In this document: positions 48,316-56,750 of the stretch, piece by piece
How positions within the stretch are numbered: position 1 is the first letter of the stretch
Layout: every line of letters begins with the position of its first letter
Assembly (NCBI RefSeq): GCF_021590045.1
Contig: NZ_CP062221.1
Span: 1,922,001 to 1,986,000, forward strand
DNA: 64,000 nucleotides
Source of the DNA: Cellulomonas palmilytica
Lineage (GTDB): Bacteria; Actinomycetota; Actinomycetes; Actinomycetales; Cellulomonadaceae
Direction of reading: 5' to 3'
Position numbers and translations under genes: made by a program
Notes under the pieces: generated by a model
Told to the model about the DNA's origin: nothing
The model's input: only the letters and a program-made list of their open reading frames with translations
The model's database searches: none

Positions 48316-48326
48316 ATTCGACGAAT
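48316..48326. promoter_or_regulatory. Small palindrome upstream of the esterase gene
   Basis: ATTCGACGAAT is an 11-base palindrome within an AT-richer patch (TTAAGCGATTCGACGAATGTCG) 119 bases before the CE3 esterase start. It may be part of a carbohydrate-responsive operator; it does not match the CebR palindrome TGGGAGCGCTCCCA. Confidence 0.3.
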
Positions 48327-48444
48327 GTCGTTCATCGAAGGAGGTGCGGGAACGTGCCCTGCAGGACCGGACGCGGATGCGGACGCGGCGAGGCGGTTCG
48401 ACGCGACGCCCGCGACGGGGCGGGCCCGACAGCCGGAGGAGACC

Positions 48445-49608
48445 ATGCGAACCACTCGGACGACGACGTCCGCGGCCCCGCGGCGGCTCGCGAGCACGCT
48501 CGCCGCGCTCGCGGTCGGCGCGCTGGCGGCGGTGCTGGGGCTGGTGGCGACCGCACCCGCGGGCAGCGCGGCGGACCCGGTGCGCATCATGGCGCTGGGC
48601 GACTCGATCACCGGGTCGCCGGGCTGCTGGCGCGCGCTGCTGTGGCAGCGGCTGCAGGCCGCGGGGATCACGGACACCGACTTCGTCGGGACACTGCCCG
48701 GTGAGGGCTGCGGCTTCGCGTACGACGGCGAGAACGAGGGCCACGGCGGCTTTCTCGTCACGAACGTCGCCGCGCAGGGGGAGCTCGTCGGCTGGCTCGA
48801 CCAGACCGACCCCGACGTGGTGCTCATGCACTTCGGGACGAACGACGTGTGGTCGAACCGCTCGACGACCGAGATCCTCGCGGCCTACACGACGCTCGTG
48901 GACCAGATGCGCGCGAACAACCCCGACATGGTGGTGCTGGTCGCGCAGATCATCCCCGTGGCGCCCGCGACGTGCGCCGAGTGCCCCGCGCGCACGGTCG
49001 CGTTGAACCAGGCGATCCCGGCCTGGGCGGCGGGCCTGTCGACGTCGCGCTCGCCCGTGACCGTCGTCGACCACTGGACGGGCTGGGACCCGGCGGTCGA
49101 CACGTACGACGGCGTGCACCCCGACGAGGACGGCATCGCGAAGATGGCGGACCGCTGGTACGCGCCGCTCGCCGCGGTGCTGACCGGCAGCACGCCCGAG
49201 CCGACGACGACCACGACGGTCCCGCCGTCGTACGAGCCCACCCCGGCGCCGACGATCTCGGCGCCGAGCACGTCCCCGTCGCCCACGCCGACCGCGACAC
49301 CCACCCCGCCGCCGACGAAGGGCTGCACCGCGACCTGGACGGTGCAGAGCCGCTGGCCCGGCGGGTTCGTCGTCGGCGTGCGCGTGACCGCCGGCTCGTC
49401 GGCCCTCACGTCGTGGACGGTCACGGCGACCCTGCCCGACGGTCAGGTCGCGAACGCGTGGAGCTCGCAGGTGGTCCAGTCCGGTTCGACGGTGACCTTC
49501 ACGCCCGCCGCGTGGAACGCCGGCCTGCCCGCCTCGGCGTCGACGGACGTCGGGTTCCAGGGCACGGGGGCACCCGAGGCGACGTCGGTGACCTGCACGG
49601 GGTCCTGA
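48445..49608 (+). CDS. Secreted CE3-type esterase (acetyl xylan esterase) with CBM2
   Basis: 387 residues. A signal peptide (1-42, cleavage near GSAA/D) is followed by an SGNH/CE3 domain: IMALGDSITGSPGCW with Ser54, GTND at 131-134, and DGVHPDEDG with Asp222 and His225. A Thr/Pro/Ser linker (about 245-293) leads to a C-terminal CBM2 module with CTATW near its start, WPGGFVVGV, VQSGSTVTF, WNAGLPAS and GFQGTG. It would deacetylate xylan while bound to cellulose or xylan outside the cell. GGAGGAGACC precedes the ATG at 48445. A strong AAGGAGG at 48339 further upstream belongs to no convincing ORF. Confidence 0.88.
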   Translation: MRTTRTTTSAAPRRLASTLAALAVGALAAVLGLVATAPAGSAADPVRIMALGDSITGSPGCWRALLWQRLQAAGITDTDFVGTLPGEGCGFAYDGENEGHGGFLVTNVAAQGELVGWLDQTDPDVVLMHFGTNDVWSNRSTTEILAAYTTLVDQMRANNPDMVVLVAQIIPVAPATCAECPARTVALNQAIPAWAAGLSTSRSPVTVVDHWTGWDPAVDTYDGVHPDEDGIAKMADRWYAPLAAVLTGSTPEPTTTTTVPPSYEPTPAPTISAPSTSPSPTPTATPTPPPTKGCTATWTVQSRWPGGFVVGVRVTAGSSALTSWTVTATLPDGQVANAWSSQVVQSGSTVTFTPAAWNAGLPASASTDVGFQGTGAPEATSVTCTGS

Positions 49609-51557: not shown

Positions 51558-51866
51558 TCAGGCGCGGCGCGTGATGCGCACCGTCCACGCCTCGGGGCCG
51601 TCGACGAGCACCTCGGTGTCGATGTGCGCACGCTCGGCGAGCTGCGCGAGCAGCGGGCGCGGCAGGTGCGGCGCGACGAGCACGAGCGAGCTCCCCGGGG
51701 CGATCGCCTCGAACGCGCCGAAGACGGTCGCGTGCCGGATGGCGTGCGGGATCGCGCGCACGTCCAGGACGGGGTCGGCCTCGTCGTGACCGCCGCAGCC
51801 GCACGAGTGCGGCTCTCCCGCGGGCTCGGGGGCGCTGGGGAGGATGTCGACGTCCTGCGTGGTCAT
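51558..51866 (-). CDS. DUF2249 domain-containing protein
   Basis: 102 residues. An N-terminal segment with HSCGCGGHDEAD (Cys/His cluster at about 20-31) precedes the DUF2249 domain (LDVRAIPHAIRHATVFGAFEAI ... DGPEAWTVRITRR). DUF2249 proteins are often found beside hemerythrin, nitric-oxide and denitrification genes; a redox or metal-handling role is possible. It lies downstream of the Fe-S-type regulator on the same strand, 91 bases away, next to the nirK operon. Confidence 0.75.
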   Translation of the reverse strand: MTTQDVDILPSAPEPAGEPHSCGCGGHDEADPVLDVRAIPHAIRHATVFGAFEAIAPGSSLVLVAPHLPRPLLAQLAERAHIDTEVLVDGPEAWTVRITRRA

Positions 51867-51957: not shown

Positions 51958-52704
51958 TCAGCGCCTCGGGACGGACCCGTCGGCGCGCCGCAGCTCGAGC
52001 ACGCAGTGCTCCCGGCCGACGAACGGGCGCAGCCGCTCGGCCGTCAGCGGTCCGCCCACCGTGTCGAGGACGCCGCTCGCCAGGCCCAGGTGCACGCTGC
52101 ACACGACGTCCGGGCGCTCGCGCGCGAGCTCGAGGAACGGGCAGCGCCACAGGTCGACGCGCAGCGCCTCGTCGTCGCGCTCGGGGTCGAACCCGAGGCG
52201 GTCGAGGTGGCCCTCGAGCGCGTCGAGCTGCCGCTGCTCGGCGGCGGTCGCGGTCTCGTCGTCGACGTCGGACCCGACGTCGAGGGAAGGTTCCAGGACT
52301 CCTCCGGGAGCGGTGAGCGCGCGACCGGCCGAGCGGGCGGCGTCCCGCGTGGGGCCGAGGTCGCGGCCGAACCCGCTGATCAGCACCTTGGTGAGCGCGA
52401 CGTGCGCGATCGACTCCTCGAGCCGCCCCATCGCGATCGGGTCGCTGCGCGCGTCGTCGGGCGACGCGATGCGGTAGAGCATGCGCGGCCGCCCGCGCAC
52501 GGTGCGGCTCTCGGGCGCGCGCACCGCGTAACCGTCGGCGACGAGACGCGCGAGGTGCTCGCGCGTCGTGTTCTCGTGCAGCCCGGTCGCGGCGGCGAGC
52601 GCGCCGACGGTGTGCGACCCGCCGCGCTGCAGGATGCGCAGCAGGTCGACGCGGCTCGCCGCGGCGAGCGTGCGCTCCGCGGGGGTGCGTCGGGGTGCCG
52701 GCAT
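51958..52704 (-). CDS. Winged-helix regulator with Cys/His redox- or NO-sensing C-terminus
   Basis: 248 residues. The N-terminal winged helix covers about 8-80 (LLRILQRGGSHTVGALAAATGLHENTTREHLARLVADGYAV). The C-terminus carries Cys188, Cys202, His205 and Cys234 in CPFLELARERPDVVCSVHLG and REHCVLEL, a spacing like the Fe-S regulators of the SufR type. It probably binds an iron-sulfur cluster and senses NO, oxygen or iron. It is divergent from the NnrS-like/nirK operon across an 87-base gap, so control of that operon and of itself is the obvious inference. ATG at 52704. Confidence 0.78.
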   Translation of the reverse strand: MPAPRRTPAERTLAAASRVDLLRILQRGGSHTVGALAAATGLHENTTREHLARLVADGYAVRAPESRTVRGRPRMLYRIASPDDARSDPIAMGRLEESIAHVALTKVLISGFGRDLGPTRDAARSAGRALTAPGGVLEPSLDVGSDVDDETATAAEQRQLDALEGHLDRLGFDPERDDEALRVDLWRCPFLELARERPDVVCSVHLGLASGVLDTVGGPLTAERLRPFVGREHCVLELRRADGSVPRR

Positions 52705-52791
52705 GTCGTCAGTATCGGGCCACGCTCCCGGGGGGACGGGCAGGACCTCGGTCCCGCGCGTCCGGGGGAGCGGGTTAACTACGGTCCTGTC
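52705..52791. promoter_or_regulatory. Divergent promoter/operator region of the nirK operon
   Basis: A -10 TACGGT (52780-52785) lies 6 bases before the GTG of the plus-strand operon. Upstream, CGCTCCC (52723-52729) and GGGAGCG (52766-52772) form an inverted repeat spanning the place where a -35 would be, the best candidate for the operator of the divergent regulator. Confidence 0.45.
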
Positions 52792-53988
52792 GTGGAAAAG
52801 ACGTCACGACGCACGGGCCCCGGCGTGCGCCTGGCCCTGCTGCTGCCCGCGGGGGTCGCGATGCTCGCGGGCCTCGACGCCGCGCTCACGCTCCTCGGCC
52901 TGCCCGCGCCCGTCCCGTCCGACCGGCTCGCGGACGTCCACGGTCCGCTCATGGTCCTGGGCTTCGTCGGCACGCTCGTCGCGCTCGAGCGTGCCGTCGC
53001 GCTCGCACCCGGCGGCACCGACGAGCGAGCCCGCCCCTGGGCGTGGGCCGCACCGGGGCTGCTGGGGCTCGGCGGACTCCTGCTCGTCGCGCCCGCACCG
53101 CTCGTGGCCGCCCGCGCGTGCCTCGTCGTCGGGGCCGCCGTGCTGGTCGCGCTGTACGGCGCGGCCTGGCGGCGGCGGGCCGACGCCGCCATCGCGGTGC
53201 AGGGGCTCGGGGCGCTGGGCGCCGTCGGCGCGGCGGTCCTGTGGGCCGCGGACGTGCCCGTGCCCTACCTCGCGCCGTGGCTCGTCGCGTTCCTCGTCCT
53301 CACGGTCGTCGGGGAGCGGCTCGAGCTCATGCGGATCGTCCCTGTGGCGCCGCTCGCCGAGCGCGGCATCGTCGGCGGGGCGTGCGCGCTCGTCGGCGGC
53401 GCGGCGCTCGCGCTCGTCTGGCCGGGTGTCGGCACCGCCGTGCTCGGGGCGGCGCTCGTCGGGATCGTGGCGCTGCTCGCACGGTTCGACGTCGCGCGGC
53501 GGACCGTGCGCGGCACCGGGCTGCCGCGCTACATGGCGGTCGCGATGCTCGCGTCGTTCGCCTGGCTCGCCGTGGCCGGCGGCCTGTGGCTCGTCGCCGG
53601 TCCGACGACGAGCGGGGCGCGCTACGACGCGCTCCTGCACGCCGTGTTCCTCGGGTTCGTCATGTCGATGGTCATGGCGCACGCGCCCGTGATCCTGCCC
53701 GCGGTGCTGCGCCGGCCGCTGCCGTACCGACCCGCGATGTACGCGCCGCTCGCGCTGCTGCACGTGACGCTCGCGCTGCGCGTGGTCGGCGACGCGCGCG
53801 ACGCCGCGGTCGTCGTGCAGGTCGGCGGGGTCGGCAACGTCGTCGCGGTCCTCGCGTTCGTGGTCGTCGCGGTCACGAGCGTGCTGCTCGGCGCACCGGC
53901 CCGGCCGGGTCGCGACCAGCGCGCCGAGCCACCCGCAGCAGCACCCCCGTCGCCCACGGCGGCGAACCGGCTGGAGGTCGTGGCATGA
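52792..53988 (+). CDS. NnrS-like polytopic membrane protein
   Basis: 398 residues with about 11-12 helices. His residues sit in or next to helices in DVHGPLMVLGFVGTLVALERA, LLHAVFLGFVMSMVMAHAP, and PLALLHVTLALRV, a pattern resembling NnrS, the heme/copper membrane protein linked to nitrogen-oxide metabolism. Exact function unknown. The GTG at 52792 is chosen from the -10 six bases upstream; there is no ribosome-binding site. Its stop overlaps the nirK-fusion start (ATGA). Confidence 0.65.
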   Translation: MEKTSRRTGPGVRLALLLPAGVAMLAGLDAALTLLGLPAPVPSDRLADVHGPLMVLGFVGTLVALERAVALAPGGTDERARPWAWAAPGLLGLGGLLLVAPAPLVAARACLVVGAAVLVALYGAAWRRRADAAIAVQGLGALGAVGAAVLWAADVPVPYLAPWLVAFLVLTVVGERLELMRIVPVAPLAERGIVGGACALVGGAALALVWPGVGTAVLGAALVGIVALLARFDVARRTVRGTGLPRYMAVAMLASFAWLAVAGGLWLVAGPTTSGARYDALLHAVFLGFVMSMVMAHAPVILPAVLRRPLPYRPAMYAPLALLHVTLALRVVGDARDAAVVVQVGGVGNVVAVLAFVVVAVTSVLLGAPARPGRDQRAEPPAAAPPSPTAANRLEVVA

Positions 53989-56750
53989 CGCGCGCCACCT
54001 GGCACGTGCGGGCCAACGCCCTGGTCCTCGTCTGGCTCGCCGCGGCCGCGGCGCTCACCGTCGCGCATCGCTGGGTGCCCGCGTCGCAGTGGCTCATGGT
54101 GCACCTGCTGCTGCTCGGCGCCGTGAGCACCGCGATCCTGCTGTGGAGCCAGCACTTCGCCGACACGCTGCTGCGCTCACCCGCGCCCGGCGGCCGGCGC
54201 GGGCTGACCGTGCGGCTCGCGGCGCACACCGTCGGGGCGCTCCTCGTCGTCGCGGGGCTCGCGCTGCCCGCGTTCGCGCTCGTCGTCCCGGGCGGCGTGC
54301 TCGTCGGCGCCGCCGGGCTCACGCAGGCCGTCGTGCTCGTGCGGCAGATGCGCGGCGCGCTGCCCACCCGCTTCCGCCCGCTGGTGCGGTGGTACGTGGC
54401 CGCAGGTCTCACGTTGCCGCTCGGTGTCGCGTGCGGCGTCGTGCTCGCGCGCGGCGCGCTGTCGGACGTCGCGCACGGACGCCTGTACGTCGCGCACGTC
54501 GTCCTCACGCTCGTCGGCTGGGTCGCGACGACCGTGCTCGGCACGCTCATGGTCCTGTGGCCCACGGTGACGCACGCGCGCATCGAGGAGGCCGACGAGC
54601 GTGCCGCGCGCCGTGCGCTGCCCGTGGTGCTCGCCGGGCTCGCGGTGCTCGTGGCCGGGGCGGCGAGCGGGCTGCAGGCCCTCGTGCCCGTCGGGTCCGT
54701 CGCCGTGGCCGTCGGTGCCGCGTTCGTCGGCGCGGTGATGTGGCGGCAGCACCGTCAGGCGGTCCCGGTCGTCGCCGCGAACGCCGCCCGCGACTTCCCC
54801 GTGCGCACGGCACCCGTCTACGTCCCGCCGACGTATGCGCCCGGGTCGCTCGCGGCGTCCGTGCTGTGGCTCGTCGGGTCGCTCGTCGCGTTCGGCGCGG
54901 TCGTCGCGGCCGCACCCGGCTGGGACGTCGCCGCCGACCGCGTGCGCGGGCTCGTCGCGCCGTTCGCCGTCGGGTTCGCCGCGCAGGTGCTGCTCGGCGC
55001 GCTGTCGCACCTGCTGCCCGTCGTGCTGGGCGGTGGCCCGGCGACGGCGCGGCGCACCGCGGCCGAGCTCGAGCGCGGCGGCGTGGTCCGGCTCGTCCTG
55101 GTCAACGGCGGGCTCCTGCTGTTCTGCGCCCCGGTGCCCAGCTCGGTGCGCGTCGTCGTGTCGATGGTCGTGCTGGGCGCGCTCGCCGCGTTCGTCGTGC
55201 TCGCGGTGCGTGCCGTCGTCGTCGCGCGCCGGGCCGCACGCGAACCGTCCGCCGGCTCGCCGTCCGCGAAGGTCGCGTCCGAGGCCGCCGCGCCGGGCCC
55301 TCGCCACCGCTCCGGTGCGCTCGCGGTCGGGGTGGGTGCGCTCGCGCTCGCGCTCGTCGTCGGCGTCGCGACCGACCCGCCCGCGGCCGGAATCCCCACC
55401 GCGGCCGCGGTCGGGGCGGGCTCGGGCGACGTCGTCGCGAGCGGGCGGACGACGACGGTCCGTGTCGAGGCGCACGACATGCGGTTCGTCCCCGCGCGGG
55501 TCGAGGTCCCCGCGGGGGACCGGCTCGTGATCGAGGTGACCAACGTCGACGACGACGTGCACGACCTGGTCGTCGCGAACGGCGCGACGAGCGGGCGGCT
55601 CGCGCCCGGGGAGTCCGCGCGGGTCGACGTGGGCGTCGTCGGGGCCGCGCTCGACGCGTGGTGCTCGGTGGCGGGGCACCGGCTCATGGGCATGACCCTG
55701 GACGTCGTCGTGACCGGTGAGGCCGAGGTCGCGGCTCCGCAGGACGGGCCGCAGGAGATCCCCGCGCACGGCGACCACGGCACGCACGGCGACGACGGCA
55801 CGCACGGCGACGGCACGTACGGCGACGACGCGGGGTCGGGCGCGACGGGCTCGGCCGCGGACCTGCTGGACCTCATGGCGGCGCCTGACGACGGGTTCGT
55901 CGCGCGCGACGCGGCGCTCGAGCCGCTCGGTCCCGACGAGGGGCCGGTGACCCACCACGTCACGCTCACGGTGCAGGAGGTCGTGCGCGAGGTCGCGCCC
56001 GGAGTCCGGCAGCGGCTGTGGACGTTCGGTGGCACGGCGCCGGGACCCGTGCTGCACGGACGCGTCGGGGACCGGTTCGTCGTGACGCTGGTCAACGACG
56101 GCTCGATCGGCCACTCGATCGACTTCCACGCCGGCGCGCTCGCCCCCGACGACGTCATGCGCACCATCCAGCCCGGCGAGTCGCTCACGTACGGGTTCAC
56201 GGCCGAGCGGTCGGGCGTGTGGATGTACCACTGCTCGACCATGCCGATGTCGGTGCACATCGCCAACGGGATGTTCGGCGCGGTCGTCATCGAGCCCGAC
56301 GGGCTCGCGCCGGTCGACGCGCAGTACGCGCTCGTGCAGTCCGAGCTGTACCTCGGCCCGCAGGACGGCGAGGTCGACGCGGCGCGCGTCGCCGAGCAGG
56401 ACCCGGACCTCGTCGTGCTCAACGGCTACGCGAACCAGTACCGGGACCGGCCGCTGACGGCCACCGCGGGGCAGACCGTGCGGTTCTGGGTGCTCGACGC
56501 GGGACCGAACCGGCCCAGCGCGTTCCACGTCGTCGGCGGGCAGTTCCGCACCGTGTTCCGCGAGGGCGAGTACACGCTGCGCGACGGCGGCTCGACCGGC
56601 ACGGGTGGTGCGCAGGTGCTCGCGCTGCAGCCCGCCGAGGGCGGGTTCGTCGAGGTGGCGTTCCCGCAGGCCGGCACGTACCCGTTCGTCACGCACGTGA
56701 TGTCCGACGCGGAGAAGGGCGCGACGGGCCGGGTCGTCGTCACACCCTGA
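53985..56750 (+). CDS. nirK: Membrane-cupredoxin-NirK fusion: copper nitrite reductase
   Basis: 921 residues in three parts. 1) A membrane domain (1-460, about 10-11 helices) with His40, 57, 164, 171, 197 and 342. 2) A cupredoxin (about 485-578) with a full type-1 copper site: His526, Cys560, His565, Met570. 3) After a His/Asp/Gly-rich linker (595-618) a NirK core (about 650-921) with type-1 ligands His710, Cys750, His758, Met763, type-2 ligands His715, His749, His904, and catalytic Asp713 and His848. It reduces nitrite to NO outside the cell membrane; the fused domains probably deliver electrons from quinol or cytochromes. GGAGGTCGTGGC precedes the ATG at 53985. Confidence 0.9.
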   Translation: MTRATWHVRANALVLVWLAAAAALTVAHRWVPASQWLMVHLLLLGAVSTAILLWSQHFADTLLRSPAPGGRRGLTVRLAAHTVGALLVVAGLALPAFALVVPGGVLVGAAGLTQAVVLVRQMRGALPTRFRPLVRWYVAAGLTLPLGVACGVVLARGALSDVAHGRLYVAHVVLTLVGWVATTVLGTLMVLWPTVTHARIEEADERAARRALPVVLAGLAVLVAGAASGLQALVPVGSVAVAVGAAFVGAVMWRQHRQAVPVVAANAARDFPVRTAPVYVPPTYAPGSLAASVLWLVGSLVAFGAVVAAAPGWDVAADRVRGLVAPFAVGFAAQVLLGALSHLLPVVLGGGPATARRTAAELERGGVVRLVLVNGGLLLFCAPVPSSVRVVVSMVVLGALAAFVVLAVRAVVVARRAAREPSAGSPSAKVASEAAAPGPRHRSGALAVGVGALALALVVGVATDPPAAGIPTAAAVGAGSGDVVASGRTTTVRVEAHDMRFVPARVEVPAGDRLVIEVTNVDDDVHDLVVANGATSGRLAPGESARVDVGVVGAALDAWCSVAGHRLMGMTLDVVVTGEAEVAAPQDGPQEIPAHGDHGTHGDDGTHGDGTYGDDAGSGATGSAADLLDLMAAPDDGFVARDAALEPLGPDEGPVTHHVTLTVQEVVREVAPGVRQRLWTFGGTAPGPVLHGRVGDRFVVTLVNDGSIGHSIDFHAGALAPDDVMRTIQPGESLTYGFTAERSGVWMYHCSTMPMSVHIANGMFGAVVIEPDGLAPVDAQYALVQSELYLGPQDGEVDAARVAEQDPDLVVLNGYANQYRDRPLTATAGQTVRFWVLDAGPNRPSAFHVVGGQFRTVFREGEYTLRDGGSTGTGGAQVLALQPAEGGFVEVAFPQAGTYPFVTHVMSDAEKGATGRVVVTP

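What the first reader, a model, noticed from the sequence alone, without database searches (positions are those of the whole stretch)
53985..56750. Three-part copper nitrite reductase fused to a polyhistidine membrane domain and a second cupredoxin
The sequence shows a complete NirK core with all type-1 and type-2 ligands, plus an extra cupredoxin with its own complete type-1 site (His526, Cys560, His565, Met570), plus about 10 membrane helices with several His, all in one 921-residue chain. This would be a self-contained quinol- or heme-to-nitrite electron path in one polypeptide. The membrane domain is like the separate NnrS-like protein encoded just upstream, suggesting that gene fusion and duplication built the operon.
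Basis: partly seen in the sequence, partly recalled or inferred. Interest (0 to 1): 0.85.

Follow-up and report, generated by a model that had tools for sequence, protein, structure and literature searches.

The report
Nitrite reductase with oxidase-fold membrane domain
A Cellulomonas-like bacterium encodes a single protein that joins a copper nitrite reductase, an extra copper-binding domain and a membrane domain predicted to fold like the core of respiratory oxidases; the membrane domain likely holds one heme that would feed electrons to nitrite, which would explain a published domain of unknown function.

The parts
53985..56750 (+). whole fusion gene (921 aa plus stop)
   Evidence: translation; full-length relatives
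53985..55244 (+). membrane domain, residues 1-420, 12 predicted helices, heme-copper oxidase subunit I fold by prediction
   Evidence: AlphaFold2; fold comparison
54102..54104 (+). His40 (helix 2), invariant; proposed heme b ligand
   Evidence: 76/76 fused and 139/139 unfused relatives; register with CcoN H339 (prob 1.8% only)
54495..54497 (+). His171 (helix 6), almost invariant; proposed heme b ligand
   Evidence: 76/76 fused and 138/139 unfused relatives; register with CcoN H55 (prob 20%) and H337 (prob 56%)
54153..54155 (+). His57 (inner end of predicted helix 2), near-invariant, role unknown
   Evidence: 71/76 fused and 129/139 unfused relatives; 9 of 19 in an earlier set of unfused loci
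55311..55373 (+). predicted helix 13 (residues 443-463) that would place the copper domains outside the membrane
   Evidence: helix; charge pattern of loops
55437..55724 (+). extra cupredoxin, residues about 485-580, type-1 ligands H526 C560 H565 M570
   Evidence: PF13473; ligands 76/76
55917..56747 (+). NirK catalytic core, residues about 645-921
   Evidence: TIGR02376 (below its cut-off); PDB matches; ligands
52774..53988 (+). upstream membrane protein (start codon uncertain, GTG 52774 or 52789; 12 helices counted by eye); its stop overlaps the fusion's ATG (ATGA)
   Evidence: immediately upstream in 68 of 77 loci
51958..52704 (-). divergent HTH regulator with conserved C188, C202, H205, C234
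51558..51866 (-). DUF2249 protein
   Evidence: PF10006; a homologue in 55 of 77 loci

Best explanation
The 921-residue protein carries a complete NirK-type copper nitrite reductase core and an extra type-1 copper cupredoxin, and its N-terminal membrane domain, predicted to adopt the heme-copper oxidase subunit I fold, likely holds one heme b between His40 and His171 that would pass electrons from menaquinol through the cupredoxin copper to nitrite. Shown by calls or sequence: the copper ligands, the two (almost) invariant membrane His, the absence of conserved His in the predicted helices 7 and 10, the conserved gene neighbourhood, and stand-alone relatives beside separate nirK genes. Predicted: 12-helix fold, N-terminus inside, copper domains outside. 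Inferred: heme b as cofactor, its place in the third pore (pseudo-symmetric twin of the oxidase low-spin heme pocket), menaquinol as donor, direction of electron flow, one fusion event in the window's class. The domain would thus be an oxidase-fold protein that lost its oxygen/NO-reducing site and kept an electron-transfer role, which suits Gram-positive cells that tether redox partners to the membrane.
Against: No Foldseek match reaches E 0.001 (best 1.6e-3). Sequence relation to CcoN is weak: hhalign prob 39% over part of the domain with a small set, about 15% with 118 CcoN sequences, and the H40-H339 pairing scores only 1.8%. Three-fold pseudo-symmetry lets helix registers be matched in more than one rotation, and the scores do not decide. 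Pfam COX1 matches none of 29 members. A third His, H57, is near-invariant (200/215) and lies 17 residues from H40, so the two-His picture may be incomplete; most unfused relatives also have His at 173 (119/139), which is not among the common residues of the fused ones. No quinol site was identified. 42 of 56 loci are neither fused nor beside a nirK; one has a laccase-like oxidase instead (L113). Full-chain pTM is only 0.61, so domain placement is uncertain. In the solved enzyme with the same cupredoxin-NirK order the extra copper is ~24 A from the core type-1 copper (PMC7201279, passages), and PMC4770552 (passages) cites higher activity when that copper site is mutated.
Confidence: 0.45

Rival explanations
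1. The membrane domain is a copper- or heme-supply or assembly partner for the copper domains, and carries no catalytic electrons.
For: Stand-alone relatives lie near several kinds of copper protein: NirK, a laccase-like oxidase and cupredoxins. The upstream partner is also a conserved membrane protein.
Against: In the 76 fused proteins no Cys or Met is conserved at 80% and only two His are invariant in residues 1-460, unlike typical copper transporters (recalled). The predicted fold is that of an electron-transfer enzyme family.
Confidence: 0.2
2. The membrane domain handles the product: it binds, senses or removes nitric oxide, as a degenerate NO reductase.
Against: FeB/CuB-type ligands are absent: no conserved His in predicted helix 7 and no conserved H-x-H in helix 10, so NO reduction by the known chemistry is unlikely.
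Confidence: 0.15
3. The heme exists but is fed by the bcc complex or another cytochrome, not by menaquinol directly.
For: Oxidase-fold relatives such as cbb3 and cNOR take electrons from cytochrome c (recalled). No quinol site was identified here.
Against: None of the six neighbouring proteins scanned is a cytochrome c; the cupredoxin already offers an outward electron port.
Confidence: 0.12
4. The membrane domain is only an anchor that has kept an ancient fold.
For: Gram-positive NirKs tend to be membrane-tethered (recalled); some actinobacterial NirKs lack the domain altogether (PMC4770552, passages).
Against: A 12-helix domain with two His kept in 215/215 and 214/215 sequences across fused and stand-alone forms is far more than anchoring needs.
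Confidence: 0.08

Closest known systems
Propionibacterium (Cutibacterium) acnes and other actinobacterial NirK, about 900 aa (PMC4770552, passages; Ellis 2007, seen only as its reference 20)
   Same: Same order: 400-aa transmembrane domain, cupredoxin with CX4HX4M, NirK core.
   Different: Nothing architectural; the published account calls the membrane domain 'of unknown function' and does not mention the oxidase fold in the passages read.
Hyphomicrobium denitrificans three-domain NirK (PDB 2dv6, 6tfo)
   Same: N-terminal cupredoxin tethered to a NirK core; best Foldseek matches of the full model.
   Different: No membrane domain; hexamer (PMC7201279 passages).
CcoN (cbb3 oxidase) and NO reductase, heme-copper oxidase superfamily subunit I
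   Same: 12-helix fold (predicted); two His in inner helices with spacing like that of heme-ligand His.
   Different: Conserved His of helices 7 and 10 absent; second invariant His in helix 6 in a different register from CcoN's; no Pfam COX1 match.
NnrS (PF05940)
   Same: Multi-helix membrane protein linked to nitrogen-oxide genes (recalled, not tested).
   Different: Pfam NnrS matches 0 of 29 membrane-domain members and 2 of 37 upstream-protein members at best E 0.35.
Ralstonia pickettii and Thermus scotoductus three-domain NirK
   Same: A redox partner tethered to the NirK core.
   Different: Partner is C-terminal, cytochrome c or cupredoxin (PMC7201279 passages), with no membrane domain.

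Membership tests
Copper nitrite reductase (NirK) | type-1 and type-2 copper ligands plus catalytic Asp and His | tested here: met
   H710 C750 H758 M763; H715 H749 H904; D713 H848
Copper nitrite reductase (NirK) | NCBIfam equivalog TIGR02376 curated score | tested here: not met
   154.1 of 296.3 bits. The cut-off also misses a 275-residue piece of the structurally solved Geobacillus NirK (196.9 bits) and L003, L052, L072, L075, so I treat it as a model's cut-off, not a defining feature
Copper nitrite reductase (NirK) | nitrite reduction | not testable with these tools
   no assay
N-terminally cupredoxin-tethered NirK (Hyphomicrobium type) | type-1 cupredoxin before the NirK core in one chain | tested here: met
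Heme-copper oxidase superfamily, subunit I | 12-helix fold | tested here: met
Heme-copper oxidase superfamily, subunit I | six canonical His (helices 2, 6, 7, 7, 10, 10) | tested here: not met
   invariant His only at H40 and H171; none conserved in predicted helix 7, position 342 in helix 10 is His in 15/76 only; so not filed as an oxidase or NO reductase
Heme-copper oxidase superfamily, subunit I | Pfam COX1 (PF00115) match | tested here: not met
   0 of 29 members listed at E up to 10, with HMMER's filters on
Heme-copper oxidase superfamily, subunit I | bound heme | not testable with these tools
   needs purified protein
NnrS | Pfam NnrS (PF05940) match | tested here: not met
   0 of 29 membrane-domain members; upstream protein 2 of 37 at best E 0.35
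Quinol-dependent reductase | quinol binding and oxidation | not testable with these tools
   no assay, no coordinates

The most novel reading that the evidence does not exclude
A branch of the heme-copper oxidase fold has shed its gas-reducing centre, moved its bis-His heme into the pore that oxidases leave empty (or arose by an arc shift of the fold), and become a menaquinol:cupredoxin electron-transfer module that Actinobacteria fused to NirK, making nitrite respiration a one-polypeptide chain from quinol to nitrite.
Probability: 0.33. Interest if true: 0.8.

Novelty: new variant of a known kind. Interest (0 to 1): 0.6.

Why it matters
To my knowledge actinobacterial denitrifiers have no established electron donor for NirK, and the function of the large membrane domain was left open in print in 2016. 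A heme-bearing oxidase-fold domain would answer both. It makes the question testable with two point changes (H40, H171) and adds a non-oxidase use of the heme-copper oxidase fold, found in 54 of 396 genomes of the window's phylum.

Tried and rejected
Two homologue searches with the 921-aa protein timed out; stand-alone and CcoN queries worked. NnrS was sought in 100 phylum genomes and rang nowhere, controls included, so that search says nothing. Testing circular permutation by rotated and doubled profiles gave no decision: rotations 0, 4 and 8 scored alike (prob 15-16%) and the doubled profile 9%, while CcoN arcs resemble each other far more strongly (prob 93-98%). Only some arc alignments were printed, so what the others pair with H40 and H171 was not seen. 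The upstream protein shows spacing like the oxidase heme ligands (His at helix 2, His at helix 10), but scores are negligible (prob 0.2 and 2.8%), so I do not claim it. I first counted L113 as nirK-adjacent; searches show a laccase-like oxidase without the NirK residues, so the count is 7, not 8. The exclusion list still holds L113's genome; that genome has a cupredoxin-NirK elsewhere (L094). The E 1e-30 limit used there misses the NirK of G097 (E 1e-25, but 294.6 bits to TIGR02376). Neighbours were scanned with Pfam in only 11 of the 56 loci (L115-L124, L126); the rest were searched only with profiles of the fusion's own cupredoxin and NirK. Plasmid search for the membrane domain: no match. 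NosZ in the own genome: two sub-threshold hits, one of them this protein's cupredoxin. The literature searches (open-access PMC only) listed no account of the fold of this domain that I recognised from titles, abstracts and the passages read.

Full report
What is there. The gene at 53985-56750 (+) encodes 921 residues. Pfam finds a cupredoxin at 486-549 and multicopper-oxidase domains at 663-772, nothing in the first 460 residues. TIGR02376 (copper nitrite reductase) matches 652-919 at 154 bits, below its 296-bit cut-off; a 275-residue piece of the solved Geobacillus NirK also falls below it (197 bits), so the cut-off is not decisive. All type-1, type-2 and catalytic residues of NirK and a second complete type-1 site are present. 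The best full-model fold matches are the three-domain NirKs of Hyphomicrobium, 2dv6 and 6tfo.

How widespread. One scan of the genome collection gave 409 candidate stretches, of which 372 encode a relative; the best 80, the ones kept, match essentially full length and nearly all bear actinobacterial names (one, L050, is labelled 'UNVERIFIED Bacillus'). The closest are Cellulomonas persica, gelida and uda at 80-83% identity. The architecture is published: PMC4770552 (passages) describes the ~900-aa P. [quoted passage not shown] It also places a 'Cellvibrio gilvus' NirK in the actinobacterial cluster; I take this strain to be a Cellulomonas (recalled).

The membrane domain. In 76 fused proteins (75 of 80 loci plus the window) only H40 and H171 are His in every sequence; H57 is 71/76, position 114 is His in 65/76 but Gln in the window, H342 is His in only 15/76. 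In 139 unfused relatives (19 loci and 120 proteins found with L113 as query, so not independent) H40 is 139/139, H171 138/139, H57 129/139, and position 173, where His is not among the commonest residues of the fused ones, is His in 119/139, giving H-x-H in helix 6. In the more varied 19 loci alone H57 is only 9/19 while H40 and H171 are 19/19. Twelve predicted helices place H40 near the outer start of helix 2 and H171 near the outer start of helix 6, given an inside N-terminus. Six of seven predicted inner loops carry more Lys+Arg than every outer loop, the loop at 271-283 being the exception, which with helix 13 puts cupredoxin and NirK outside.

The heme proposal. Oxidase subunit I is built of three arcs of four helices. 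Its low-spin heme is held by a His in helix 2 and the second His of the H-x-H in helix 10 (recalled; the conserved His themselves are seen in 118 CcoN sequences). The spacing of H171 (Gly at +7, Pro at +22) is that of CcoN H55 and H337, and that of H40 (Gly at +5) is that of CcoN H339; the printed profile alignments pair these residues (H171-H55 prob 20%, H171-H337 56%, H40-H339 1.8%). By the three-fold pseudo-symmetry a helix-2 His of the second kind and a helix-6 His of the first kind would both face the pore between helices 2 and 6, which oxidases leave empty.

Functional coupling. The membrane family occurs in 54 of 396 phylum genomes. Of 56 loci examined (the window not counted), 7 are fused, all in the window's class, and 7 have a separate nirK adjacent: L111, L112, L114, L130, L166, L179, L181. 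These seven NirKs fall into two groups by TIGR02376 score (160-174 versus 295-337 bits); in L112, L130 and L179 the cupredoxin-like stretch is C-terminal to NirK. The pairing may thus have arisen more than once. In L113 the neighbour is a laccase-like oxidase with a cupredoxin; in L121 and L167 a cupredoxin lies next to or near the membrane gene, and in L124 a laccase-like oxidase lies about 2.3 kb away. The remaining 38 showed none of these nearby, with the limited look told under Tried and rejected; L127 has a nirK about 14 kb off and L122 cupredoxin-like stretches some 3-5 kb off. Genomes with the family have a NirK-like hit (E up to 1e-30) in 27 of 41 cases against 8 of 255; relatedness of the genomes is not corrected for, and two weak family hits (G003, G276) are counted as present. 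A tree of 85 sampled sequences puts all 26 fused ones in one clade with no unfused member.

The operon. The upstream gene overlaps the fusion by ATGA in the window and is immediately upstream in 68 of 77 loci with enough upstream sequence; a DUF2249 homologue is somewhere in 55 and a regulator homologue in 52 of those loci. PMC11218638 (passages) reports DUF2249 genes near nirK and nor in a haloarchaeon, induced under denitrifying conditions. The genome has NarG and a single PF00115 hit; NosZ is not found above its cut-off. So nitrate to NO is the predicted extent of denitrification, with no NO reductase of this superfamily detected.

Verdict. A known actinobacterial NirK architecture whose unexplained membrane half now has a likely identity. 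The oxidase fold is the strongest new point (my estimate 0.9), the bis-His heme intermediate (0.55), the menaquinol-to-nitrite direction inferred (0.45 for the whole path).

Noticed in passing
window 51958-52704 (-): Divergent HTH regulator with C188 and C202 in 51/51, H205 in 51/51 and C234 in 47/51 aligned homologues (the other 4 have a gap there): looks like an iron-sulfur (SufR/NsrR-like, recalled) sensor, possibly of NO.
   Followed up: partly
window 51558-51866 (-): DUF2249 protein; a homologue lies in 55 of 77 fusion loci with enough upstream sequence.
   Followed up: partly
L203:1333-2886, L204:147-1577, L205:1183-2856, L206:937-2994, L207:604-2862, L208:1324-3339: CcoN-like proteins (TIGR00780 E 1.9e-57 to 1.4e-27) that lack the six ligand His of CcoN; L206 and L208 continue into a C-terminal stretch with a CxxCH heme c motif. 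Another set of oxidase-fold proteins without an active site.
   Followed up: no
window 52774-53988 (+): Upstream protein (12 helices counted by eye) with invariant H, ER, ERxE, D and two His near the end; spacing resembles oxidase low-spin heme ligands, but profile scores are negligible.
   Followed up: partly
L121:8945-9939 (-): Stand-alone membrane-domain relative next to a lone cupredoxin and a DUF2269 membrane protein.
   Followed up: no
window 54324-54326: Position 114 is His in 65 of 76 fused proteins but Gln in the window and ten others.
   Followed up: no
window 54153-54155: His57 at the inner end of predicted helix 2 is kept in 200 of 215 aligned relatives without an assigned role; a quinol or proton site is possible.
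   Followed up: no
window 48325-49608 (+): Secreted protein that looks by eye like an SGNH hydrolase with a C-terminal cellulose-binding module.
   Followed up: no
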